From NCBI GenBank assembly GCA_030847615.1, contig JAUMIR010000003.1, positions 72,116,001-72,180,000 of the forward strand: 64,000 nucleotides of DNA, in the 5' to 3' direction. Of this stretch, positions 1-56,532 are shown in pieces. The number at the start of each line of letters is the position of its first letter. The stretch's first letter is position 1. The notes beneath the pieces were generated by a model. That model had not been told where the DNA came from. It was given only the letters and a program-made list of their open reading frames with translations, and did no database searches. The translations under genes and the position numbers were made by a program. This stretch comes from Gambelia wislizenii. Taxonomy: Eukaryota; Chordata; Lepidosauria; Squamata; Crotaphytidae.

Positions 1-2920
1 GATGCACAGGTTGTCATCTTGTCTCTTCTGCTAGTTGAAGGGCATGGTCCAGGAAGGAAAAGGAAAATAGCCAACGTAAACAACTGGCTCCATAGATGGT
101 GTCACCAAGAATGATTTGGATTCTTGGATCATGGGCTGTGCTTCCATGAGGGGGGACTTCTGGCAATAGATGGGGTTCATCTGACAACAGTTGGCAGAAA
201 CATTTTTGCCTACAGTTTCAAGAATTTGATCAGGAGGGCTTTAAACTGAGTCATATGGGGGAGGGAGACAGTATTCTGGAAGGCAAAAGGGCTGGAGAAA
301 ATAGTCAAACTGTCATAGAGGGAACAAGGCAAACAGCGCAAGAACCCAACAGTGGGAGGCAAAAAACCTTGCACAGGCAGCAAGTAAAGGGAACACAAGG
401 TCTTAGATGTCTCTACACAAATGCACAGAGCATGGGAAATAAGCAAGATGAACTCAAACTCCCAGCACTACAAAACAAATATGATATAATAGGCATTACT
501 GAAACCTGGTGGAATGTAGGATTGGTATGTAGGAATAGCGGGGTATAACCTTTATAAGAGAAACAGGCCAAACAGGAAAGGAGGAGGAATAGCATTATAT
601 GTCAGGGATATTTATACCAATGAAGAGATCCATGACATCAATACTGGGAGCCAGGTTGAGAGCATCTGGATAAAAATTAAAAGGGAGGGAAACAACAGGG
701 ATGTTATTGTGGGACTCTACTACAGACGCCCAAGTCAGACGGACGAATTGGATGATGCCTTTCTGGAACAGATGACCACAGACACAGAAAGGAGAGATGT
801 AGTAGTGATGGGTGACTTCAACTATCCTGATATTTGCTCGAAATCTAACTCAACCAAAACTTCAAGGTCTAGCAAATTCCTTACCTGCCTGGAAGACAAT
901 TTCATGGTCCAAAAGGTGGAAGAGGCAACAAGGGGGTCAGCTATTTTAGATCTGATCCTAACCAACAGGGATGACCTGGTTAATGGGGTGCAAATGGTGG
1001 GATCCTTAGGTGAGAGTGATCATGTTCTCCTGGAGTTTATTATACAATGGAAAGGAGAAGCCAGGCATAGTCAGGCATGCATTCTCGACTTTAGGAGAGA
1101 TGATTTCAATAAACTCAGGGAAATACTGGGGGTGATTCCATGGTCAGGAATATTAAAAGAGAAGAGACCTCAAGATAGATGGGACTTTCTCAAAAGGGAG
1201 ATACTGAAAGCACAATTTCAAACAGTACCATTGAGGAAGAAAAATGGGAGGTGTCTCAAGAAACCAGGATGGATGACTAAAGAACTTTCAACAGAGCTAA
1301 GTTTTAAACGGAACATGTATAGGAAATGGAAAAAGGGGGAAATCACCAAAGAAGAATTCAAACAGATAGCGAACACGTGTAGGAGTAAAGTCAGAAAAGC
1401 TAAAGTGCAGAATGAGCTCAGGCTTGCTAGAGAGGATAAGAACAATAAAAAGTTTTTTGGGGGGTATGTCCGCAGCAAAAGGAGGAAGAAGGAAATGGTA
1501 GGGCCACTTCGTGGAGAAGATGGCAAAATGCTAACAGGGACAGAGAAAAGGCAGAATTACTCAACACCTTCTTTGCCTCAGTGTTTTCAGAAAAGGAAAA
1601 GGGTGACCAATCTGAGGAGAATGGAACAGAGGACCCAATAGGGGAAATCCAGCACAGAATAAGCAAAGAGGTAGTACAGGAATACCTTATTAATCTAAAT
1701 GAATTTAAATCTCACGGACCAGATGAATACATCCAAGAGTATTACAAGAGCTGGCAAATGTAATCTCAGAGCCATTGGCAACAATCTTTGAGAACTCTTG
1801 GAGAACAGGAGAAGTCCCAGCAGACTGGAGGAGGGCAAATGTTGTCCCCATTTTCAAAAAGGGGGAAAAGGAGGATCCCAACAATTATCGTCCAGTTAGT
1901 CTGACATCAATACCATTAAACAGAGAGTCTGTGAACATTTAGAAGGCAATGCCATAATCACAAAAAGTCAACATGGGTTTCAGAGAAACAAGTCATGCCA
2001 GACTAATCTGATCTCTTTTTTTGATAAAATTACAAGCTTGGTAGATGAAGGGAACGCTGTGGATATCGCATACCTTGATTTCAGTAAGGCCTTTGACAAG
2101 GTTCCCCATGATATTCTTGCAAACAAGCTTGTAAAATGTGGGGTAGAGAAGTTAACTGTTCAATGGATTTGTAACTGGTTGACCGATCAAACCCAAAGGG
2201 TTCTCAGCAGTGGCTCCTCTTCTTCTTGGAAAAATGTGACCAGTGGGGTGCCACAGGGTTCTGTCCTGGGCCCAGTGCTATTCAACATCTTTATCAATGA
2301 CTTGGATGACAGAATTAGGGGCATACTTACCAAATTTGCAGATGACACCAAATTAGGAGGAGTAGCTAATATCCTAGAGGACAGGATCAAAATTCAAAAT
2401 GACCTGGATAGACTGGAGAGCTGGGCCAAAGCTAACAAAATAAAATTCAACACGGAGAAATGTAGGGTACTGCACTTAGGGCGAACAAATGAAATGCATA
2501 GATATAGGACGGGGGAGACCTGGCTGAATGAGACTACGTGAGAAAGGGATCTAGGAGTCCTAGTAGACCACAAGTTGAACATGAGTCAATAGTGTGATGC
2601 GGCAGCTAAAAAGGCCAATGCGATTTTGGGCTGCATCAATAGAAGTATAGTGTCTAGATCAAGGGAAGTAATAGTGCCACTCTATTCTGCCTTGGTCAGA
2701 CCTCACCTGGAATACTGTGTCCAGTTCTGGACACCACAATTCAAAAAGGATATTGACAAATTGGTGGGATCTCCTTCCTTGGGGGTCTTTAAACAGAGGC
2801 TGGATTGCCATCTGTAGGGGATGCTTTGATCATGATTTCCTGCATGGCAGGGGGTTGGACTAGATGGCCCTCATGGTCTCTTCCAACTCTGCAATTTTAT
2901 GATTCTATGATTGTTATGAT
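1..2920 (+). mobile_element. CR1 LINE, 5' end outside window, internally deleted
   Basis: This non-LTR retrotransposon of the CR1 clade begins inside the 3' end of ORF1 (bases 1-150 match the segment at 20,228-20,370), continues through ORF2 (endonuclease then reverse transcriptase) and ends in the CR1 3' tail with ATTCTATGA-type repeats at about 2,900-2,920. About 330 bases are missing near 2,760: the text passes from the block reading NIDK/DIDK to the block reading [14 protein letters not shown], whereas the copies at 22,980-23,340 and 40,470-40,840 carry the intervening sequence. Frameshifts and stops make it inactive. The L1 fragment starts directly at its tail. Confidence 0.93.
255..2817 (+). 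pseudogene. CR1 ORF2 (endonuclease-reverse transcriptase), broken
   Basis: Decayed CR1 ORF2, which in live elements encodes an AP-type endonuclease that nicks the target and a reverse transcriptase that primes cDNA there. The endonuclease part (about 399-1,080) shows NAQSMGNKQDEL, ITETWW, the metal/DNA-binding MGDFNYPDI and an intact SDHVLLEF near its end. The RT part (about 1,840-2,500) shows AFDKVPHDIL, SGVPQGSVLGP and an intact catalytic FADD at about 2,336-2,347. The frame moves from frame 3 (255-548) to frame 1 (709-1,641), back to frame 3 (1,581-1,763), then frame 1 (2,038-2,541). A TGA lies at 2,539-2,541 just before [12 protein letters not shown], and the same stop occurs in the copy at 41,039. 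The C-terminal part is shortened by the deletion near 2,760. Confidence 0.92.
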
Positions 2921-3790: not shown

Positions 3791-4239
3791 TATCCCTCAT
3801 TCCATTCCTGCCACGGATATTCCTGTGAGTGAAAAGGTGCCCCTTTATGCTGGCAAGATCCCAGCATCAATGGGAGGTCCCTGCCAGAACACTTCCAGGT
3901 GAGATCAGGACATCCAGGTAAGCTACCCTATTTTTGGTACACTCCCTGGGTTATTTGTAATGTTTTTAGTGTGTTTAGGTGCTTGGTGTTCCTTTTTTGT
4001 GTTTATTTATATTTTTGAATTTCCCGTGCTCATGTCTTCTCGCAAGTATCCTCAGGATTTCAATCCAGGAAGTGAAGGGAGCTCTTTTAGAGCTCCGTTC
4101 ACTCCTGGGCTGCCAGAATGACAGGAAAGGAGGTAAGTGTGATGGTAAGGATGATTGTGGCAGGTCAGGGACGGGACAGGGGCGGGAGTGGAGATTGTAG
4201 GACAGGAACACTTTTTTTCGTTCCTGTCTGATAATCTCT
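3791..4239 (+). mobile_element. MITE with GGAGATTATC-type ends, 5'-truncated copy
   Basis: The right-hand part of the repeat also present at 33,147-33,722 and 44,631-45,187 (+) and 35,066-35,667 (-). Shared blocks include 'ggtgagatcaggacatccagg', the 'tttttgaatttccc' block and a GGAGCTC..GAGCTCC hairpin at about 4,078-4,100. It ends in GTCTGATAATCTCT at 4,239 followed by TAA. The left terminus is absent because the L1 3' end starts the copy. No coding capacity; mobilisation would need a transposase supplied in trans. Confidence 0.75.
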
Positions 4240-4571
4240 TAAATCTTTTGTGCTACTCAAACACATGTGTAAGAGACATGCAGTCTTCCCCGTAGGCCTC
4301 AGTAAGCATTTGAAAAGATTCAGTTGGTGTTTTGTTCAATTTTACTAAAAAATTAAATTGATATGTTGCTTGACTTTTAAACTTAACATTTTTTTGGCAC
4401 ACAACAGACAACACGGCTGCTTTAAATTATGACTGACAATTAACTGAACTGCGGAGAGTGTTGATGTTTGTCATGCAGGTTCAGACATGTTCAAGGTCAC
4501 CATTCAAGTGTTTAGAATCAGTTCTCCTTGATTTGTTTGAAAGGTAGAGATACAGTCTCATTATTTAATAG
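4240..4571. other. Unassigned A+T-rich interval
   Basis: I see no coding frame, palindrome or recognised repeat between the MITE end and the next CR1 fragment. Confidence 0.5.
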
Positions 4572-4882
4572 ACCTTGTAGCCATGTTTTAAATATTTGAA
4601 GGGATGTCATAGTGAAGAATGAACAAGCTTGTTTTCTGATGCTCCAGAGACTACGACACAGAGCAAGGAAGACATTCCACTTAAACATTAGGAAGAACTT
4701 CCTGATGGTAAGATCTGTTCGGCAGTGGAATGCACTGCCTCAGAGTGTGGTGGAGTCTCTTGGATGGCCATCTGCTGGGAATGCTTTGATTGTGTATTCC
4801 TGCATAGCAGGGGGTTGGTCTGGATGGCCCTTGTGGTCTCTTCCAACTATGATTCTATGATTCTATGATTTTAATTCTATGA
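4572..4882 (+). mobile_element. CR1 LINE 3' fragment
   Basis: Aligns by eye with the last 300 bases of the CR1 copies at 23,120-23,461 and 40,361-40,680 (-). It carries the coding remnant HLNIRKNFLMVRSVRQWNAL and the terminal 'ggatggccc..tggtctcttccaact' block, then several ATTCTATGA-like repeats. Part of the KQRLDGHL segment is deleted near 4,762. Inactive 5'-truncated copy. Confidence 0.9.
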
Positions 4883-5550
4883 AGAGAGTGTGAGGTGGTC
4901 CATGCACTGTCAGTTCTGGCTCTTTGCATCATGATTTTGATGTTGCCCACTTTGATTTTGATTCTCCTTACTGCTGGCATGAGGCTTACAAAATGTTATC
5001 CACAAGGGACTGTGGCCTGCAGACTGTTCTAGCTTCAGGGTTACAAACAACTATAAAAAGAATCAAAATGGTTGTTTAGAGTCATGATATTTATGATGCC
5101 CAAATGAAGCAGATTGTGATACAAGAGCTATGCTGCAATGTGGCAAAGGTGTCTGGGGTAAAAATCATGGACTGTGTGCATTCCTGTGATCAAAAAATTG
5201 TATCTCAGCATACTTTCTGCGTGGATCTTGGGGACATGGTGCACCTCATGGACAATGTTTTACAGCTGTGTGAGATAGCAAAATTCTTTGGACCAGGCTT
5301 ATTTCAAACTAATCAAGATAAGTGTTACCAAAGTGAAAACTCTGCAGTCTTTTAAAAAAACATTCTCTGGCATCTGTCCAGGAAAGGTCTATTAATTCCC
5401 CCCCCCCCTACAAGACAGTAAAACTGAGTTTTTGATTTCCCACTGACATCCTCTACAGCTGTGGATAAAGAAATATTACCACATTCCAGCCAACAAAAGC
5501 AGCACCTCCACTATAGAAAAATGCCTTACCTGCTATTCAGTTCCAGTCTT
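4883..5550. other. Unassigned interval with a poly-C run
   Basis: No recognised repeat or gene. An 83-codon open frame at 5,104-5,355 (+) has no family resemblance I can name and no splice or start context, so I do not call it. A run of ten or so C residues lies at about 5,399-5,409. Confidence 0.4.
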
Positions 5551-5626
5551 CCAAAGAAAATCTTCTGAAATTCATGGGGTCACCATAAGTGGACAGACAA
5601 CTAGAATGCACATACACACACACACT
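5551..5626 (+). mobile_element. tRNA-derived SINE, 3' end only
   Basis: Contains 'tgaaattcatggggtcaccataagtgg..caact..aatgcacatacacacaca', the 3' end of the SINE family also seen at 7,201-7,270 and 49,678-49,794. The promoter half is missing, so this copy is dead. Confidence 0.65.
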
Positions 5627-5879
5627 AATCAAGTATCATGGGTCACTTCTTCATTGGCCATCTATAGCCCTAAGGAGAAACAACAAGCCCACTGCCAGAT
5701 GCATCATGGGTACTCAGTCAATAATTAATAGGTGTTACAGTTATGAACCCAGACTCCAAATGAGCCTACCGTTTCTGTTTATAACTTTTGTATTGTGGTA
5801 GGAAAAACATACCCTCTCAAAGCCATTTGCAGCTCTTAGCTTTCTTGTAATATTTAAGCCTAGTGTTTAAAAAAGGAAA

Positions 5880-7090
5880 AAGAAAAACGGTAAATGCGAA
5901 GGGAAGGAAGACGGAGGGAATGGGCAGCCACCAAGTCAAACTGCGGGATTCGCCCCTCACTTCCACCTTCCAGGAAGGTGGACGAAAGGGGCGAAAATAT
6001 CCAGTTTGCCTCGTCCGCCCCCCTTCCCCCATCTTCATTCCCTTTGGAAGGGAATGAAGACGTGGGGAATGGGCAGCGGCCATGGCAAACCACAAGATTC
6101 GCCCCTTTCTTCCACCTTCTAAGAAGGTGGACAAAAGGGACGAATGTACCTGGTGTGCCTCGGCTGCTGTAAGGGTGGCTCAAGGGGGGGATTTCCACCC
6201 ACCCACCCACCCCCTCCCTGAGGCCTCGATCGGGAGCCCGATCGTGGCTTCGGGGAGGGTGGAAGGGTGGCTCAAGGGAGGGATTTCTAGCCAACCCACC
6301 CCATCCCCGAGGCCATGATCGGGAGCCCGATCATAGCTTTGGGGAGGATGGAAGGGTGGCTCGAAGGGGGTCTTTCTAGCCAACCCACCCCTCCCCAAGG
6401 CTGCAATCAGGAGCCTGATCGTACCTTCGAGGAGGGTGGAAGTGTGGCTCGAGGGGGGGCTTTCCAGCCACCCACACCCTCCCCAAGGTTGTCATCGGGA
6501 GCCTGATCGTGGCTTCAGGGAGGGTGGAAGGGTGGCTCAAGGGGGACTTTCCAGCCACCCACCCACTCCCCGAGGTCACGATCAGTACCACAATTGTGCC
6601 TTTGGGGAGAGTGGAAGGATGGCTCAAGGGGGGGACTTTCCAGCCAACCCATCCCCTCTCCAAGGCCACGATCAGGAGCCTGATTGCAGCTTTGGGGAGG
6701 GTGGAAGGGTGGCTCAAGATACTAAGACAGAGGGAATGGGCAGTGGCCATTGCAAACCGCGAGATTCCCCCCTTTCTTCCATTTTACAGGAATGTGGAAG
6801 AAAGGAGCAAACGTACCCGGTTTGCCTCGGCTGCCGCTCGATTTCCTATGTGTTTGTTCCCTTTGGGGAGCAAACACACAGGAGATCCAGTGGCGGCAAA
6901 CCGCAACAGTCGCCCCCCTCATCTGTCTTTGGTTCTTCCCCAAAGGGGGAGAAGGCAGAGGAGGGGGGCAAATTAACCGGTAAACACTTTTTCTCACACA
7001 CACCCCGCCCGATCTCCTGCCTCTTCGCTCCATTTGTGAAGGGAGTGAAGAGGCAGGAGATCGGACGGCGGGTGAAGCAAAGTGTATCTG
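5880..7090. repeat. Array of palindromes (hairpin-dense block)
   Basis: A conspicuously G+C-rich block in A+T-rich surroundings, built almost wholly of imperfect palindromes in series. Hairpins of about 100 bp (type A) occur at about 5,921-6,020, 6,069-6,172 and 6,737-6,838, each beginning with a 'gggaatgggcag' segment and having a TTCCACCTTC..GAAGGTGGA-like apex. Shorter ones (type B) lie at about 6,021-6,064, 6,839-6,888 and 7,004-7,071, and another long one at about 6,889-6,990. The centre (6,173-6,717) is an array of 88-bp units, each itself a palindrome. No terminal repeat pair or target duplication was found for the whole block. Overlapping open frames of up to 221 codons on both strands are by-products of the symmetric sequence. 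Confidence 0.85.
6173..6717. repeat. 88-bp palindromic minisatellite, about six units
   Basis: Unit boundaries marked by GATCGGGAGCCCGATC or variants begin at 6,228, 6,317, 6,405, 6,493, 6,580 and 6,670, so spacing is 87-90 bp. The DNA between successive markers is self-complementary: an arm like 'gatcgtggcttcggggaggg' returns as its reverse complement at the end of the same unit, and GGGTGGCT pairs with AGCCACCC around a G-rich apex. Each unit is thus a hairpin, and the marker is a second short palindrome. Units differ by scattered substitutions. Confidence 0.9.
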
Positions 7091-7200
7091 GCATATCCTA
7101 ATCCTCCATGAATTTGTCCAGTTCCTATTTAAAGTTGTCCAAGCTGGCCACTATCACTCCCCCAGTTCATGTTTATTTGACAGCCACTATCATTCCTTGG
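7091..7200 (-). mobile_element. Possible CR1-like LINE 3' scrap
   Basis: 'aatttgtccagttcctatttaaagttgtccaagctggccactatcac' resembles the C-terminal coding end of a diverged CR1/L3-type LINE read on the minus strand, as at 46,175-46,340. It is short and eroded. Confidence 0.4.
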
Positions 7201-7270
7201 CTAAGAAAACCTAATGAAATTCATAGGGTCGCCATAAGTTGACAGGTGACTTGAAGGCACATAAACACAT
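7201..7270 (+). mobile_element. tRNA-derived SINE, 3' end only
   Basis: Carries 'ctaagaaaacc', 'ttcatagggtcgccataagt' and 'gacttgaaggcac', followed by a short ACAT tail: the 3' part of the squamate tRNA-SINE group. No A or B box remains. Confidence 0.7.
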
Positions 7271-7649
7271 ATCATTAAGACATCAAAGTTCATCTTCTCT
7301 GCCAGCATATATCTCTTTTTCACTCTGTTGTTTCACATGGACATTTCTCCTTCTGACTTCTCTGTCCACAAATTAAACCCAATAATTGTTGATCCCACAT
7401 CAATGCCCTGTATGTAATGTTTCTGTTCTTTAATAAATTGTGTACATCTCAAGAGTTTCCCCATTCATGTGCCCATTCCCTGCTGTTTTGCATTCTGACA
7501 TTTGGTTAAAGATTCTATCACACATCAAGTGGATGAATGTGCACGCAAGTGCACATGTTAATGAAGACATGTGATAATAAGTGGGATGACTCACTGAATA
7601 CTCAGAAGAAAGGGGAAAGAGGATTTAAGATCATGGAATGCTGTCCATA
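7271..7649. other. Unassigned interval
   Basis: A+T-rich sequence with no recognised gene or repeat. Confidence 0.4.
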
Positions 7650-7862
7650 AAATGTCATTTCTAGCTATAATTCTGAGCTTTGATGAATTAAGAAAATTCA
7701 GATAATTGCCAAATTTCCATATTGATAGGAAGATGGCACGTATGGGAATACAATAACTTAAATGGGAATGCAAGCTTTCCATTAAAATGGAAATTGGGCA
7801 ATTATCTGAATTATCTTTAATTCATCAAGTGCTGAATTACTGATAGAAATGACTTTTTTTTA
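7650..7862. mobile_element. Fold-back MITE, about 210 bp
   Basis: Two inverted arms, about 7,655-7,720 and 7,785-7,858. The left arm reads 'gtcatttctagctataattc' then 'ttgatgaattaag'; the right arm returns the complement ('taattcatcaagtgctgaat', then 'gatagaaatgac'). The middle contains a second pair around ATTTCCAT/ATGGAAAT. The arms differ at several sites, so it is old. Confidence 0.7.
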
Positions 7863-9640
7863 AAAAAAAGTATATAGAAATGTTAAGATCTTAAAATGTA
7901 CCATCCATTTCATTTTGAACAAGCTGGCTCATTGTCAAGTGTTGCTTTAGACCATTTAGCCTTTGCTCATTACCAGTCACATTCACCCACTTTATTCACA
8001 GAAGGAGTTGTGCTTGCAAGTGAAGCAGAAAGAAGTTAAAACTATCCCTGTTGTAGGTGGCATTACATTAAGGGATCATTCACACAAGAAATTTTCCATT
8101 TAGCAACTCAGCAAGTAACCCGCAATCAAGTGGTGATTGCTTTCCTAGGCTATATTTCGCAAATAACGAGACCATTTTTCAGGTCAATGCTAGCAGTGAG
8201 ACTGTAGAACCAAGGTAGGAATGCCTTCTATAAGCTTTGTTTGCCTGTGGACTCAGGAATAGAGAGTTCAGACAAAGGTTGACCCAGGAAGGGCCAGAAC
8301 TTTATGGATAGCTTAAAGGATTTTCAATGAGCTAACTTTTATGAACTAATTCTTAAATCCCAGATCCCCAGGGTGGGTATAACTACTTGAGTTGGAAAAA
8401 AGCAAATGCTACATTATCTCCTGTCTTCAAACCAGCCGAGTCCAGTCTTATCTGGAGCCAAGTGTATGAGAATATCTCAGTTTTATTTTGTTCCACATTT
8501 GATTTTTTTTAAAGTCCAGGTTTTTCTTGTTCTAAATGTGGATAGACTTCTGAATGCTGATTAAATCTTTAAAAATGAACTGAAACAAATGTCTTTGCAA
8601 TTTTGCACCAGACCAATTCAATGGGCACATCTATTCCCAGTGTGGCGGGAATAGCTGTACTTGCTTGTCATATACATATTAAAGAAGATGGACCTTTCAG
8701 AAAAAAAGGAGGTGGCAGCTCAGCACTAGCTTGGTTGAATATGCAGGGATTCAACCCCAGGATTTAAGAGTTAAGTAATCAGAACCCTGGGCCTGGATGA
8801 ATGATTCTGTGGGAATTTAGATGGGCAAATTGTTGCATTTCAAGGGGTAGTCCATGGACAGGTCACACTTTATTATTTAGAATTCAAGTGACACACATCA
8901 TCTTCCAAACAATCCAGTCACCTTCCTGACATTAGCAGAAGATGTTTTTTTCATTATGTATCTACTCCAAAAAAATAAAACTACTGTATTTTGATGTTCA
9001 TTTTCTCTGAAGGTTTTCCCATACCTCAAACTGTTTTCATCATAGTTGTGTTGCTTCTTGGGTAGCAAGGACAGAGTGTCCTCCAAGAACCATCCTCTCT
9101 CCAGTATCTCCCTACTCCACTCCCCACATTTGCTCAAATTAATTTCTGGTCATCTAACAGGAAAGAGTGACACCTGTGGGAAGAGAACTTGAGAGTGGTG
9201 TGGTGTGATGTTATGTGGTGCACAAACAGAAAAAGGGCATAGATTTTCCATCATGTTCTTAAAAAAACATTTGTTCATGTGAGTGCCCAGCCACATTTCT
9301 TTCTTAATTTAGTAGGAAATGCACTCCCCTGGCATGTGGAGCAGCAAGCTATAAAGGAGGGGGAGGGATGGTTTGATGGCCTCTGTGAAGAGAGGCCAGA
9401 ATCCCAGACACTTGGGGTTGGGTGCAAAGCCTAAGGCACATTGACAGAGCAGAGTCAAAGTGGATTTAAGGCTCTGCCTCCCCTTCACATGCCCCCTCTT
9501 GCTTGTCTTGCTTTGACCCATGCAGCCCCCTCAGTGCAGTGTGAGCAAAGCTGGTCACTTTAGTGGGGATGGGAATGAATTCATACCCCCTTTTTTTTTT
9601 AACCAGGCAGTTTTTTGCCTACCCCATACTGTATCTGATG
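7863..9640. other. Unassigned interval
   Basis: No recognised coding sequence, RNA gene or transposon. It contains homopolymer-rich patches (T/A runs at about 7,854-7,869) and open frames of at most 79 codons without family resemblance. Confidence 0.4.
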
Positions 9641-17814: not shown

Positions 17815-17915
17815 CAGTTTCCTGCACAGAAAGCAGAAAAATAGCATTTCTTCACACATAGTTCTGTGCAGGAAACTTGTTTCCTGCACAGAAAATGCTA
17901 TTTTCTGCACCAAAA
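17815..17915. repeat. Short palindrome cluster
   Basis: TTCTGTGCAGGAAAC tt GTTTCCTGCACAGAA is a perfect 15-bp inverted repeat at about 17,863-17,894. A third copy of the arm lies at about 17,818-17,831 and an AATGCTATTTTCTGC block pairs with GCAGAAAAATAGCATT upstream, so the whole 100 bp can fold. Confidence 0.8.
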
Positions 17916-24174: not shown

Positions 24175-24503
24175 GGACTTTTTCGGATAAGCTAATTGTA
24201 GCGCTAGCAGCCTCGCCATGTTGCGAGGCTGCAGCGCTGCAGGGCGTACCTTTTGGATGATGCCCATCCCTGCCGGTACTGTTGCGGTACCACAGGGACA
24301 TTTGACTGGAATATTTTGGAGATTTTTACTCACGATCAACTTTCGTGAGTAAAAATCTCCAAAATATTCCAGTCAAATGTCCCTGCGGTACCGCAACAGT
24401 ACCGGCAGGGACGGGCGTCATCCGAAAGGGACGCCCTGCAGCGCTGCAGCCTCGCAATGTGGCGAGGCTGCTAGCGCTACAATTAGCTTGTCCGAAAAAG
24501 TCC
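24175..24503. mobile_element. Fold-back element, 329 bp, nested palindromes
   Basis: Two arms of about 160 bp, roughly 93% identical by eye, meet at ACTCACGA tcaactt TCGTGAGT (centre about 24,339). The ends are GGACTTTTTCGGA and TCCGAAAAAGTCC and TTC stands on both sides (24,172-24,174 and 24,504-24,506), a 3-bp duplication. Each arm contains its own palindromes: GCAGCCTCGC..GCGAGGCTGC, TAGCGCTA and GCAGCGCTGC. It has no coding capacity and would need a transposase in trans. The GGA tip and 3-bp duplication match the MITE family at 26,704 and 35,066. Confidence 0.92.
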
Positions 24504-33766: not shown

Positions 33767-34116
33767 GGAGATTTTCACATGGGCAATATATTCCAAGGAG
33801 TGATCGGGGCAGAAAAGGGGCTGTTCCTGAAGCAGCACCCCGTTTCGCATGCCCCCTGTCTTCTCTCGATCTCCTGTCGTCTTCGTTCTGTGCAGCTTCC
33901 AGTTTCCTCCTGGTATCTTCCATCATTTTTTAATAACGAAGGTTCCTCGTTATTAAAAAATGACGGAAGATACCGGGAGGAAACTGGAAGCTGCACAGAA
34001 TGAAGACAATGCGAGATCGAGAGAAGGCAGGGGCGTGCAAAATGGGGTGCTGCTTCAGGAACAGCCCCGTTTCTGCCCTGATCGCTCCTTGGAATTTATT
34101 GCCCGTGTGAAAATCC
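33767..34116. mobile_element. Fold-back element, 350 bp
   Basis: Arms of about 170 bp, roughly 90% identical by eye, meet at TTAATAACGA..TCGTTATTAA (centre about 33,942). Ends are GGAGATTTTCACA and TGTGAAAATCC (two bases lost at the right tip). It starts only 44 bp after the MITE at 33,722. The copy at 55,336-55,679 has the same tips, the same 'gaaacggggctgttcc' block and the same style of centre. Overlapping frames on both strands are by-products of the palindrome. Confidence 0.92.
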
Positions 34117-40360: not shown

Positions 40361-41092
40361 CATAGAATCATAGAATTGTAGAGTTGGAAGAGACTACAAG
40401 GGCCATCCAGTCCAACCCCCTGCCACGCAGGAATCACGATCAAAGCATCCCTGACAGACGGCCATCCAGCCTCTGTTTGAAGACCTCCAAGGAAGGAGAC
40501 CCCACCGCGCTCCGAGGGAGTGTGTTCCACTGCCAAACAGTTCTTACTGTCAGAAAGTTCCTCCTAATGGTGAGGTAGAATCTCTGTTCCTGGAGTTTGC
40601 ATCCATTGTTCTGTGTTCTAGTCTCTGGAGCAGCAGAAAACAAGCTTGCTCCATCCTCAATGTGACACCCCTTCAAATACTTAAACAGGGCTATCATACC
40701 ACCCCTTAACCGTCTTTTTTCCAAGCTAAACATATCCAGCTCCCTAAGTCTTTCTTCATAAGGCGTGGTTTCCTGACCTTTCACCATTTTAGTCGCCTTC
40801 CTCTGGACACGCTCCGATTTGTCAATATTCTTTTTGAATTGTGGTGCCCAGAACTGGACACAGTATTCTAGGTGAGGCCTGAGCAAGGCAGAATAGAGGG
40901 GCACTATTACTTCCCTTGATCTGGACACTATACTTCTATTGATGCAGCCCAAAATCGCATTGGCCTTTTTAGCTGCCGCATCACATTGTTGACTCATGTT
41001 CAACTTGTGGTCTACTAAGACTCCTAGATCCCTTTCTCACATAGTCTCGTTCAGCCAGGTCTCCCCCATCCTGTATCTATACATTTCTTTTT
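40361..41092 (-). mobile_element. CR1 LINE, 5'-truncated
   Basis: Reverse-strand CR1 copy of about 730 bp: starts within the RT C-terminal coding region (GETWLNET) and ends in the TCATAGAATCATAGAAT tail at 40,361. It is close to the copy at 1-2,920 but keeps the segment that copy lost. It is the best-preserved coding stretch of any CR1 here. Confidence 0.95.
40440..41036 (-). pseudogene. CR1 ORF2 C-terminal fragment, open for about 199 codons
   Basis: After a TGA (41,037-41,039 on the minus strand) the frame is open to 40,440 and includes a Met at 41,003. It reads [66 protein letters not shown] and [19 protein letters not shown]. This lies downstream of the RT catalytic domain, so alone it has no enzymatic role. 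The openness probably reflects recent insertion rather than selection. Confidence 0.9.
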
Positions 41093-53639: not shown

Positions 53640-54330
53640 AGCCACTATGCCACCGCCATGCAATCGCGTGTACATACACACACAATGCTACACACACACA
53701 ATGCGTGCCAGGACATGAGGACTCCTCTGCATCCACCATGCAACCATGTGTACACACACATACCACTCTACACACTCACCCCATGTGTGCCAGGACATGA
53801 GAGCCCCTTCGCCTCCACCATGAAATTGCACATACATAACACACTCCATGCTACACCCCCACACTACACCCCCTGCTACACTCCCCCTGCTACACAAACA
53901 TACCACACTACACCCCACACACTATGCACACATCCCACGCTACTCTCCCACACTACATCCCCATGTTATATCCCCACGCTACACACATCCCCATGCTACA
54001 CACACACTACACCCCCATGCTACATACAGACATGCTACGCACACACAACACTACACACACATCTCCCATGCTACACCCCCACACTATATCCCCATGCTAC
54101 ACACACAACCCACATGACAACCCCCCATGCTACACACACACAAACACTACACTACACCCCATGCTACACACACACCTCACACTACACCTCTGCACTACAG
54201 ACACCTCCCCACCCTACCCTCCATGGTACACATATATCCCACACTACATGCACACCCATGCTATACTGCCCGCACACTACACACACACACAACATGCACA
54301 CCATGATGCGAGCGCTCCTCCACCACCACC
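53640..54330. repeat. CA-rich minisatellite
   Basis: The left part has two or three copies of a roughly 100-bp unit ('gtgccaggacatgag..cctccaccatg' then a CA-rich stretch) at about 53,640-53,860. The rest is a degenerate array of 'cacactacaccccatgcta'-like 15-30-bp units. The plus-strand frame of 226 codons (53,658-54,338) is a His/Thr/Pro-rich translation of the repeat, not a protein gene. Confidence 0.88.
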
Positions 54331-54700: not shown

Positions 54701-54900
54701 CTGTTATTATATAATAACAGATTATCAGTTTTCAGAGAAGTAGCCATGTTAGTCTTTTGCAGCAGAAAAAGGAGGATTAGAGCATTAAAAGGAGGAAGGG
54801 AGAAAGGAATGTAGCAGCACCGTTAAGACTAACTGGTTTTTATTTTAAAATAACTAGTTAGTCTTAACAGTGCTGCTACATTCCTTTCCCCCTCTCCCCC
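54690..54900. mobile_element. Hairpin pair of the 'AGACTAAC..GCTGCTACATTCC' repeat
   Basis: GGAATGTAGCAGCACCGTTA and the following AGACTAACT (54,808-54,836) return as AGTTAGTCTTAACAGTGC and TGCTACATTCC (54,855-54,884). An A+T-rich hairpin, ATCAGTTTTC/GAAAACTGAT with TTATTATATAATAA at its centre, lies at 54,687-54,739. Related sequence is at both ends of the insertion at 55,088-56,530. Confidence 0.65.
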
Positions 54901-55087: not shown

Positions 55088-56532
55088 GGATATTATGGCA
55101 CCTTTGAGACTGAGAGAGAAAAAGTTTGTAGCATAAGTTTTTATAGACTACCTCATCAGACACATGGAGTAAAGTGCCTATTGACAGACATTCATACCCA
55201 TGAATGAGCACGTGGTGTGTGTGAATAGTCATAGAAATGCAAAGCCTGTGGGTATGGTGATGGGGTGATAAGTTCAGTTTTAATTATGATCATTGAGGGA
55301 TGAGTGTGAGGAAAGATATTGCCTAACGCCAAGATGGAGATTTTCACACAGTGGAAATAACCCCCAGGGAGATTGGGAGAGAAACAGGGCTGTTCTGGTT
55401 GCAGCGCTCCGTTTCGCACGCCCCCTTCCTTCTCCTGATTTCCTGTCGTTCTCCCTCCGTTCTGCTTCCATTTCCCTTCCGCTATTTTTTACTAATGAAA
55501 GTTTTTCGTTAGTAAAAAAAAATAGCTGAACATAGCAGGAGGGAAATGGAAGTAGGATGGAGGGAGGATGACAGGAGATCGGGAGAAGGAAGGAGCGCTG
55601 CAAAATGGAGCGCTGCAACCGGAACAGCCCTGTTTCTCTCCTGATCTCCCCAGGGGTTATTTCCCCCGTGTGAGTCTCCGAATAGATAGCCATATGAATG
55701 CTAAGAGGGAGTTCTTAGAATATAATGTTGCTGGCTGGGAACCAGAAAGGAGACGTGATAAAATGGGCAAGAGAGCCCTCATGAAGTTGAAGTTGAGTTC
55801 TAATATGTGTAGTGTGCCAAGAAGCCATTATCTCTCTCAATCCACTGTTGATGGACTGGAGTTTGTGGATACACCCCAACTTTGCTGTTTCTCTTTCCAG
55901 TCTCCCAAATTCCGAATTCAATCTTTATGTTTTTTCGTTCAAGGATTGTTTTTTTGAGGTCCAAGATGGATTGTCCAGGATGACTGAAGTGTTCTGCACC
56001 TGATATATGTGTATTCCCATTCCTAAGGTATGATTTATGTCCATTTATCCTCTGCCAGAGACTGGCCAGTTTGCCCAATGTAGAGTGCTAAAGAGCATTG
56101 TTGACAGAGGATAGCATATATCATTTTAGAGGATGAGTAAGTGAAAGCACCTCTAATATTGTGAGTGATGTGATTAAGTCCTGTGATGACATTTCCCAAG
56201 TAGATGGGTGGGCAATGTTGTCATCTGAGATTGTGGCAAGGACCCAGCCACTCCCTCTGCCATTCATACAGGGATGTACTCATCTTGGCTTCAGGGAATA
56301 TCTCTCCTCCCACCTCTATCCCTCAACGACCATCATTAAAACTGAACTTGTCACCCCATCACCATAGCCATACACAACTTGCTCATTCAGGGGTATAGAT
56401 GTCTGTCCATAGGTACTTCACTCCATGCAACTGATAAAATAAACCCAGCCTACAAAGTTAGTCTCTACGGTGCTACAATACCCCTTTGCATACCAATCCA
56501 GACAAACAAAGCTATGTCTTTGAACAATCTTA
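55088..56532. mobile_element. Insertion with long inverted ends
   Basis: The left 250 bases ('tattatggcacctttgagact', 'catgaatgagcacgtggtgt', 'ggtatggtgatggggtgataag', 'attgagggatgagtgtgagg') return inverted at 56,270-56,492 ('tctatccctcaacgacc', 'ttgtcaccccatcaccatagcc', 'cttgctcattcagggg', 'ggtgctacaatacccc'). Its 'gtctctacggtgctac' motif is that of the repeat at 54,690-54,900. The fold-back at 55,336-55,679 lies in the interior next to the left arm. No ORF recognised. Confidence 0.75.
55336..55679. mobile_element. Fold-back element, 344 bp
   Basis: Arms of about 165 bp centred near 55,508 (TTTTTTACTAATGAAAg / cGTTAGTAAAAAA). Tips GGAGATTTTCACACAG and GTGTGAGTCTCC. Blocks 'ggctgttctggttgcagcgctccgtttcgcacgccc' in the left arm parallel the element at 33,767-34,116. 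Flanks GAT and GAA, so no exact duplication remains. Non-coding. Confidence 0.88.

What the first reader, a model, noticed from the sequence alone, without database searches (positions are those of the whole stretch)
6173..6717. Tandem array whose every 88-bp unit is itself a palindrome
Minisatellites are normally not self-complementary. Here each unit between GATC(G/A)GGAGCC(C/T)GATC markers is an imperfect hairpin with an arm of more than 30 bp, repeated about six times at 87-90-bp spacing. Single strands would form a row of hairpins; such DNA is expected to be hard to replicate and easily rearranged, yet six units persist with independent substitutions.
Basis: seen in the sequence. Interest (0 to 1): 0.75.

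Follow-up and report, generated by a model that had tools for sequence, protein, structure and literature searches.

The report
Transposon carrying tandem palindromic hairpin repeats
The row of six self-complementary 88-base repeats is part of an old, end-trimmed copy of a jumping DNA element that spread through a lizard-like genome carrying such hairpin arrays with it, and recently active relatives of that element carry another array of hairpin repeats of their own.

Summary
In detail: six units (6169-6702), spaced 87-92 bp, each a near-complete imperfect palindrome. The family consensus folds into one 32-bp stem.

It is neither a local event nor, in the loci examined, a free satellite. In the window's own 2.47-Gb, lizard-like genome the array was scored at 40 loci (lower bound), each inside a bounded repeat. 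The window copy (5895-7096) lacks both ends. The 25 copies with both tips are 1.3-2.6 kb, have 28-bp terminal inverted repeats tipped by TA, and carry no transposase: a non-autonomous DNA transposon with 6-26 units. A likely autonomous partner was found: a pogo/Tigger-type element (450-aa DDE_1 transposase) sharing its ends and flanking hairpins. Two of its copies differ at 1 of 1850 bases. Its 5' leader carries another tandem array of palindromic 147/130-bp units.

In 347 of the 88-bp units there is no excess of compensatory change and stems are not conserved, so inserted copies drift. Between source lineages the A-type hairpin did change on both arms together (small, hand-chosen sample), suggesting template switching or selection in active elements.

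Verdict: new variant of a known kind (MITE carrying a tandem array), unusual because the repeated modules are palindromes.

The parts
5895..7096 (.). Copy of the non-autonomous element, lacking both ends. In MITE orientation as written on the + strand, its left side corresponds to the 3' end of the autonomous element, so a transposase would be read on the - strand
   Evidence: 26-39 of 39 other loci align between 5900 and 7050 and 0 at 5850 and 7100; no TIR found near it
6169..6702 (.). Array of six palindromic units of 87-92 bp (6169-6260, 6261-6349, 6350-6437, 6438-6525, 6526-6612, 6613-6702), followed by the start of a seventh to 6717
5900..6018 (.). A-type hairpin 1
   Evidence: 119-nt repeat family D2; fold
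6015..6075 (.). B-type hairpin 1
   Evidence: fold; similar to B3, 0 of 200 shuffles as high
6049..6167 (.). A-type hairpin 2 (repeat unit; the hairpin itself about 6072-6166), directly left of the array
6716..6836 (.). A-type hairpin 3, directly right of the array
6827..6900 (.). B-type hairpin 2
   Evidence: fold; similar to B3, 0 of 200 shuffles as high
6887..6984 (.). Diverged A-type hairpin 4
   Evidence: similar to A2 and A3, 0 of 200 shuffles as high in each case
6971..7096 (.). B-type hairpin 3; in complete copies the right terminal repeat follows about 70 bp further on

Best explanation
5895-7096 is an old copy, lacking both ends, of a non-autonomous pogo/Tigger-type DNA transposon (a MITE derived from an autonomous element of the same genome). 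The 88-bp palindromic array arose and was re-amplified inside source copies of the element, next to older double-hairpin repeats of about 147-bp period, by replication slippage or unequal exchange. It was then carried to many places as cargo when the transposase moved the element. Once inserted, units decay neutrally. The hairpin arms were most likely made, and in active source elements re-made, by hairpin-templated copying (template switching) rather than kept by selection. SHOWN: dispersed bounded element, terminal repeats, ends shared with a pogo-type autonomous element, array variants inherited with element subfamilies, no sign of pairing constraint on inserted copies. INFERRED: that this transposase moves the MITE, that TA is the duplicated target, slippage or exchange as amplifier, template switching as the source of the arms.
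For: Dispersal: 40 loci scored of 1780 first-look candidates. Bounded homology. TIR TACCGTATATTCCGGCGTATAAGACGAC at both ends; 25 of 40 sequences with both tips, TA at 20 of 25 first and 17 of 25 last tips, no outer direct repeat of 4 or more in 14 full-tip copies. No transposase by tblastn in the 39 loci, the window-copy flanks or the whole window. Autonomous partner: 450-aa frame with DDE_1, BrkDBD and HTH_Tnp_Tc5; the first 103-106 bp of two complete MITE copies match its 3' end at 83-90% in three copies; one copy (C44) is complete from TIR to TIR, 4.18 kb, and its 5' end carries B3-, A4- and A-like hairpins. Co-inheritance: left junction of the array shared by 34 of 40 and right by 27 of 40, window included; 10 of 11 diagnostic alleles sort by locus beyond every one of 200 shuffles; all 11 loci with left-end variant v2 carry all or part of the same nested insertion. 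Neutral decay: 160 pair-keeping double changes against 163.5 +/- 9.9 shuffled in 347 units; non-CpG divergence 0.0875 in stems, 0.0751 outside; CpG sites 0.318. Arm co-change between source lineages.
Against: No empty site was compared, so TA duplication is inferred, and the TA tips were found with a TIR query that itself holds TA. The 88-bp unit was not found in the three autonomous copies examined, so where it arose is unknown. 6 of 40 sequences lack the window's left array junction and 13 of 40 the right one. Within-array re-amplification after insertion also occurs (112 of 347 nearest neighbours local). Template switching rests on few lineages: of 15 hairpin comparisons five show no overlap or P above 0.1, the six hairpins were chosen by me from those listed, and the search pattern there demanded a paired apex. 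A 130-bp unit that lost part of one hairpin still reached about 30 copies, so pairing is not needed for amplification. Only the 40 best places were scored.
Confidence: 0.85

Rival explanations
1. The hairpin arrays are a selected working module of the active element: transcribed they form long hairpin RNAs (as at Drosophila hp-CG4068), or as DNA they bind transposase or host factors or set chromatin. Inserted MITE copies are debris of that module.
For: The autonomous copies also carry tandem palindromic units in their leader. Between the V hairpin of C44 and the MITE A consensus 8 positions differ in each arm, 7 of them the same, 6 still Watson-Crick (P 0.00018). Recent activity: two copies differ at 1 of 1850 bases.
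Against: No excess of compensatory change in 347 of the 88-bp units or in 59 A-type hairpins of inserted copies. Four of six frequent stem alleles of the 88-bp unit break a pair without compensation. The 130-bp unit amplified after losing part of a hairpin. No RNA data were available.
Confidence: 0.15
2. A palindromic satellite family exists independently and was captured by the transposon one or more times.
For: The 88-bp unit shows no detectable relation to the A or B hairpins or to the units of the autonomous copies. Capture of a pre-existing tandem repeat has been proposed for the Xenopus MITE miDNA4 (passages of PMC12628747).
Against: Each of the 39 other loci holds the array within a bounded repeat, and 34 of 40 sequences share the left junction, as for a single origin inside the element. 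Free arrays were not searched for exhaustively.
Confidence: 0.2
3. A local tandem duplication of a palindrome at this locus only.
For: Within the 64-kb window the cluster has no second copy.
Against: 39 other loci in the same genome.
Confidence: 0.01
4. A known structured RNA gene or a coding repeat.
For: Stable folding.
Against: No Rfam family at gathering threshold in 5895-7096; two reading frames over the array and its right side had no homologue at E up to 1; no stem conservation.
Confidence: 0.02

Closest known systems
miDNA4, a Tc1/mariner MITE of Xenopus with a satellite inside (Scalvenzi and Pollet 2014; known to me here only from passages of the review PMC12628747)
   Same: MITE of the same broad superfamily with an internal tandem array of variable copy number, dispersed by transposition
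   Different: Nothing in the passages says that its monomer is palindromic; here the repeated modules are palindromes and the autonomous relative also carries palindromic arrays
Xmix / Xstir of Xenopus (Hikosaka and Kawahara 2004, title and review passages only: PMC9659126 table, PMC12628747, PMC2872659 reference list)
   Same: Tandem repeats riding on a MITE; a stem-loop was proposed in their amplification
   Different: Repeats there are described as derived from internal MITE sequence; the 88-bp unit here has no detectable source in the rest of the element
Tetris foldback transposon of Drosophila virilis (PMC4079207: abstract, outline and passages)
   Same: Non-autonomous DNA transposon with internal tandem repeats, variable forms
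   Different: Its 220-bp repeats lie within long TIRs and seed kb-size satellites; the words palindrom- and hairpin do not occur in the main text. Here TIRs are about 28 bp and the repeats are internal palindromes
hp-CG4068 tandem hairpin-RNA locus of Drosophila (PMC10317233, passages)
   Same: Tandem hairpin units with fast copy-number change (20 in D. melanogaster, 9 in D. simulans)
   Different: A transcribed siRNA locus, not described there as a mobile element; no transcription data here and no pairing constraint in inserted copies
TmSat2 of Tribolium madens (PMC13081366, passages)
   Same: A satellite monomer that is largely one palindrome, and arrays that flip orientation (compare)
   Different: Megabase pericentromeric satellite with 704-bp monomers and ~300-bp arms; here small arrays inside dispersed transposons
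pogo/Tigger transposons (group knowledge recalled)
   Same: Transposase domains and TA-tipped TIRs
   Different: A leader of 2.3 kb (C44) or at least 5.4 kb (C33) rich in tandem palindromic units is not a feature I recall for the group; not searched exhaustively

Membership tests
Non-autonomous DNA transposon (MITE-like) | Terminal inverted repeats at both ends of a bounded, dispersed repeat | tested here: met
   25 of 40 sequences have both tips, the others one or none; bounded homology in 39 of 39 other loci. The window copy itself has neither tip
Non-autonomous DNA transposon (MITE-like) | No transposase gene of its own | tested here: met
   tblastn of the 450-aa transposase: no match in 39 loci, window-copy flanks or whole window
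Non-autonomous DNA transposon (MITE-like) | Target-site duplication | tested here: inconclusive
   TA at 20 of 25 left and 17 of 25 right tips, no longer direct repeat in 14 full-tip copies; no empty site compared
Non-autonomous DNA transposon (MITE-like) | Small size, usually under about 600 bp (recalled) | tested here: not met
   1286-2634 bp in 25 copies. 'MITE' is used here in the wide sense of a deletion derivative
pogo/Tigger (Tc1/mariner superfamily) | DDE_1 transposase with HTH_Tnp_Tc5/CENPB-type DNA-binding domain in the autonomous partner (group assignment recalled) | tested here: met
   DDE_1 E 1e-30, BrkDBD 4.2e-12, HTH_Tnp_Tc5 1.3e-10
pogo/Tigger (Tc1/mariner superfamily) | The MITE shares both ends with that autonomous element | tested here: met
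   3' end: 103-106 bp at 83-90% in three copies. 5' end: TIR in C44 (28 nt) and cut at the fetch edge in C33, followed by B3-, A4-, A-like hairpins. C1 5' end not reached; L049 shows the subterminal part only; L050, a fifth DDE_1 locus, shows no such end
pogo/Tigger (Tc1/mariner superfamily) | Mobilisation of the MITE by that transposase | not testable with these tools
   needs an excision assay
Satellite DNA | Long arrays, independent of transposon ends, often heterochromatic | tested here: not met
   In the 40 sequences examined arrays have 6-26 units within bounded repeats; the whole genome was not searched for free arrays
Hairpin-RNA (hpRNA/esiRNA) locus | Stem complementarity kept by compensatory change | tested here: not met
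   347 units: 160 pair-keeping double changes against 163.5 shuffled; six window units: 4 cells against 4.3 shuffled. Met only in comparisons between source lineages of the A-type hairpin
Hairpin-RNA (hpRNA/esiRNA) locus | Transcript and Dicer-dependent small RNAs | not testable with these tools
   no RNA data
Foldback (FB/Tetris-like) element | Long TIRs, often with tandem repeats inside them | tested here: not met
   TIR identity ends after about 28 nt (consensus of both ends); repeats are internal
Rfam RNA families | Match at gathering score over the array | tested here: not met
   the only window matches are at 54803-54887

The most novel reading that the evidence does not exclude
A recently active pogo/Tigger lineage in a lizard carries, between its 5' end and its transposase gene, a leader of 2.3 to more than 5 kb rich in tandem palindromic units, and its lineage has made such arrays more than once from different sequences (88 bp; 147/130 bp), with arms that stay complementary while the sequence turns over in source elements. 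The palindromic arrays would then be a working module of the transposon (hairpin RNA, nuclease or chromatin decoy, or transposase docking), or the visible product of a hairpin-copying process in which template switching keeps rebuilding both arms.
Probability: 0.2. Interest if true: 0.75.

Novelty: new variant of a known kind. Interest (0 to 1): 0.55.

Why it matters
Transposons are a recognised cradle of tandem repeats, and long palindromes are expected to be hostile to replication. Here one transposon family has spread hundreds of hairpin units (347 kept from 40 sequences), and near-identical, recently active relatives still hold amplified palindromic arrays (28.6-30 copies of a 130-bp unit at 96-97% match), which flip orientation once in each of the three copies seen. 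One genome thus offers a series from young to strongly decayed copies for testing how palindromic arrays arise, whether arm complementarity is restored by template switching or by selection, and how it decays once the element is dead.

Tried and rejected
Rejected readings: single local event (refuted); free satellite, for the loci examined; coding sequence: two frames over the array and its right side had no homologue at E up to 1; known RNA; phage or plasmid origin: no blastn match, and 0 exact pattern hits in viral contigs. These collections hold no reptile genomes, so they only exclude those sources. Similarity of the 88-bp unit to the A or B hairpins or to the other palindromic repeats of the window was not detected; weak similarity of some A/B hairpins to those other palindromes (for example B3 with 55336-55673, 0 of 200 shuffles as high) was seen there and left unexplained. 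A search for terminal repeats between the window copy's own flanks gave nothing, as expected for a copy without ends. An apparent covariation in 84 A-type hairpins (0 of 200 shuffles as high) disappeared when 25 copies with poorly matching (probably shifted) arms were set aside (59 kept). Of 365 unit hits 18 incomplete ones were dropped (347 kept). The script stopped with an error after printing its table; redid the step. The output was cut.

Literature: ten searches (listings and starts of abstracts seen) listed no report that I recognised as a pogo/Tigger element with arrays of palindromic units in a squamate; this covers only the open-licence library and those terms, and pogo or Tigger was not itself a search term. 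Paper PMC3879986 was not held.

Full report
WHAT IS THERE. The array is real: TRF 6171-6718, period 88, 6.2 copies; ungapped copies spaced 89, 88, 88, 87, 90. Units begin at 6169, 6261, 6350, 6438, 6526 and 6613; pairwise identities are 72-87%. Each unit pairs its two halves over 32 named positions, 22-27 of them Watson-Crick. Folding of the array exceeds shuffles by z -9.75. The family consensus unit folds into a single hairpin (-37.8 kcal/mol, z -7.55, 0 of 200 shuffles as low).

SURROUNDINGS. The array lies among further hairpins: A-type (5900-6018, 6049-6167, 6716-6836, a diverged one at 6887-6984) alternating with B-type (6015-6075, 6827-6900, 6971-7096). Successive A-type copies are spaced 149, 667 and 144 bp, so the 88-bp array takes the place of the second B. 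CpG observed/expected is 0.47 around the cluster and 0.18 in the window. The host looks like a squamate: the best hits of the CR1-like frame at 709-1638 are proteins of the lizard Zootoca vivipara, 64% identical.

A DISPERSED ELEMENT. The genome holding the window (G000, 2.47 Gb, 68 contigs; window = C22:72116001-72180000) matches the array at 40 loci; 1780 candidates were seen and 40 scored, so this is a lower bound. I fetched the 39 others. Against window 4000-9000 homology is seen in 26-39 of 39 loci between 5900 and 7050 and in none at 5850 or 7100; a few loci also match a CR1-like stretch near 4600-4850. All-against-all comparison shows a bounded repeat in each locus, in four of them (L015, L028, L029, L031) in two pieces. 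Complete copies begin with TACCGTATATTCCGGCGTATAAGACGAC and end with its reverse complement. Of 40 sequences 25 have both tips; 20 of 25 begin and 17 of 25 end with TA; length 1286-2634 bp, the longest being a copy with an insertion. The window copy has no recognisable TIR. Elements are more self-paired than their flanks (0.64 against 0.49 of bases, 14 copies).

THE ARRAY TRAVELS WITH THE ELEMENT. Complete units per sequence: 6-26. The left junction of the window array is found in 34 of 40 sequences and the right junction in 27 of 40, the window counted in both. Among 347 units 112 have their nearest neighbour in the same locus (9.5 expected); mean distance is 0.174 within and 0.199 between loci, so arrays were already diverse when inserted, with some later local amplification. 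Position within the array is hardly conserved. Of 11 diagnostic alleles 10 sort by locus beyond all 200 shuffles (between-locus share 0.24-0.73; the eleventh 0.12, shuffled mean 0.11), and they go with the left-end variant: 58C averages 0.57 in 26 v1 loci and 0.05 in 11 v2 loci, 50A 0.11 and 0.69. All 11 v2 loci carry all or part of one nested insertion (133-371 bp aligned) at the left side of the element; the only other match (L015) lies outside its element. Source lineages thus homogenised their arrays and passed them on by transposition.

THE ENGINE. DDE_1 (PF03184) gave 151 matches in the genome (150 of 248 candidates scored). I fetched five of these places. The 450-aa frame at C1:185.15 Mb has DDE_1, BrkDBD and HTH_Tnp_Tc5, the make-up of pogo/Tigger transposases (recalled). 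Three copies (C1, C33, C44) end in the same TIR; a fourth (L049) shows the subterminal part only; the fifth (L050) shows none. The first 103-106 bp of two complete MITE copies match the 3' end of the three copies at 83-90%. C44 runs from TIR to TIR over 4.18 kb, and its 5' end carries B3-, A4- and A-like hairpins. C1 and C33 differ at 1 of 1850 bases and lie in different flanks; C44 is 98.5% identical: recent activity.

A SECOND PALINDROMIC ARRAY. Between the 5' hairpins and the gene the autonomous copies hold tandem units of 146-147 bp (C44) or 130 bp (C33: 28.6-30 copies, 96-97% match; C1: at least 12, cut by the fetch). The 146-147-bp units fold at -40 to -48 kcal/mol; the main 130-bp form, which lost part of one hairpin, at -20 to -24. 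Orientation changes once in each: 4 plus then 5 minus in C44, 30 then 4 in C33, 12 then 4 in C1. The unit resembles the A hairpins of the MITE (ten best nhmmer hits E 3.5e-7 to 1.6e-5, one at window 5963-6074) and has nearly the A+B period, so A/B are probably its older relatives. The 88-bp unit has no hit in the three autonomous copies and no detectable relation to A or B.

IS PAIRING MAINTAINED? In the 88-bp unit, no. Main helix, 347 units: 160 pair-keeping double changes against 163.5 +/- 9.9 shuffled; all double changes 325 against 309 +/- 12 (18 of 200 shuffles as high); cells paired 0.8116 against 0.8095 +/- 0.0015 (19 of 200). Second helix: 6 against 4.5 +/- 2.0. Non-CpG divergence is 0.0875 in stems and 0.0751 outside, CpG sites 0.318. 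In the window, arms of one unit are no more alike (0.63) than arms of different units (0.63; 353 of 720 permutations as good), and 3 pairs with double changes compare with 2.9 shuffled. Of six frequent stem alleles, four (58C, 75C, 30C, 72C) break a pair and two (50A, 73C) turn a G-T into a Watson-Crick pair. In A hairpins of inserted MITEs, no (59 copies: 9 against 7.2 +/- 2.2). Between source lineages of the A-type hairpin, yes in part: V of C44 and the MITE A consensus differ at 8 positions in each arm, 7 of them the same positions, 6 still Watson-Crick (P 0.00018); of 15 comparisons among six hairpins that I chose, five show no overlap or P above 0.1. The apex pattern used to find them demanded pairing next to the loop.

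MECHANISM. Best supported: palindromic units arise and multiply in source elements and are dispersed by pogo transposition; dead copies drift. Joint arm changes fit template switching, which can create hairpin stems and mend their pairing in one event (PMC8794818, abstract and start of introduction); selection on active elements is not excluded. Loss of part of a hairpin did not stop amplification.

NOVELTY. MITEs that carry or seed tandem repeats are known (miDNA4, Xmix/Xstir, Tetris), as are palindromic satellite monomers and tandem hairpin-RNA loci. The combination here (pogo element, repeated modules all palindromic, two palindromic arrays without detectable relation in one lineage, autonomous relative in the same genome) is a new variant of a known kind.

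Noticed in passing
window 24175-24503: Near-perfect palindrome, 161-nt arms, 95% complementary, 7 nt between; looks like another foldback/MITE repeat.
   Followed up: partly
window 33767-34110 and 55336-55673: Two copies (71% identical) of another fully palindromic repeat of about 340 bp; family not identified.
   Followed up: partly
window 54803-54887: Rfam reports mir-16 on both strands (41 and 40.3 bits, cut-off 36.5). The place is a palindrome with 45-nt arms (54797-54893), so it is probably a false match to a palindromic repeat; not tested further.
   Followed up: partly
window 17863-17896: Short near-perfect palindrome TTCTGTGCAGGAAAC..GTTTCCTGCACAGAA (fold).
   Followed up: no
window 255-2541 and 40443-41036: CR1-like LINE reading frames; the frame at 709-1638 is nearest to Zootoca vivipara proteins.
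   Followed up: partly
window 53841-54187: Cluster of short tandem repeats with C-rich and ACAC units.
   Followed up: no
L047 2255-2618 and ten other v2 loci: Nested insertion of about 360 bp beginning TAGTTGTCCC and ending GGGACAACT, at the left side of the element in all 11 v2 loci, complete or in part; resembles Tigger-type MITEs (recalled).
   Followed up: partly
L048+L051, L052+L054, L053+L055: Near-identical pogo-type elements with open 450-aa frames: a recently active DNA transposon in this genome.
   Followed up: partly
L052 3297-3562: A MITE end of the same family lies 12 bp beyond the 3' tip of the autonomous copy, tail to tail, with further units of about 147-bp period behind it.
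   Followed up: no
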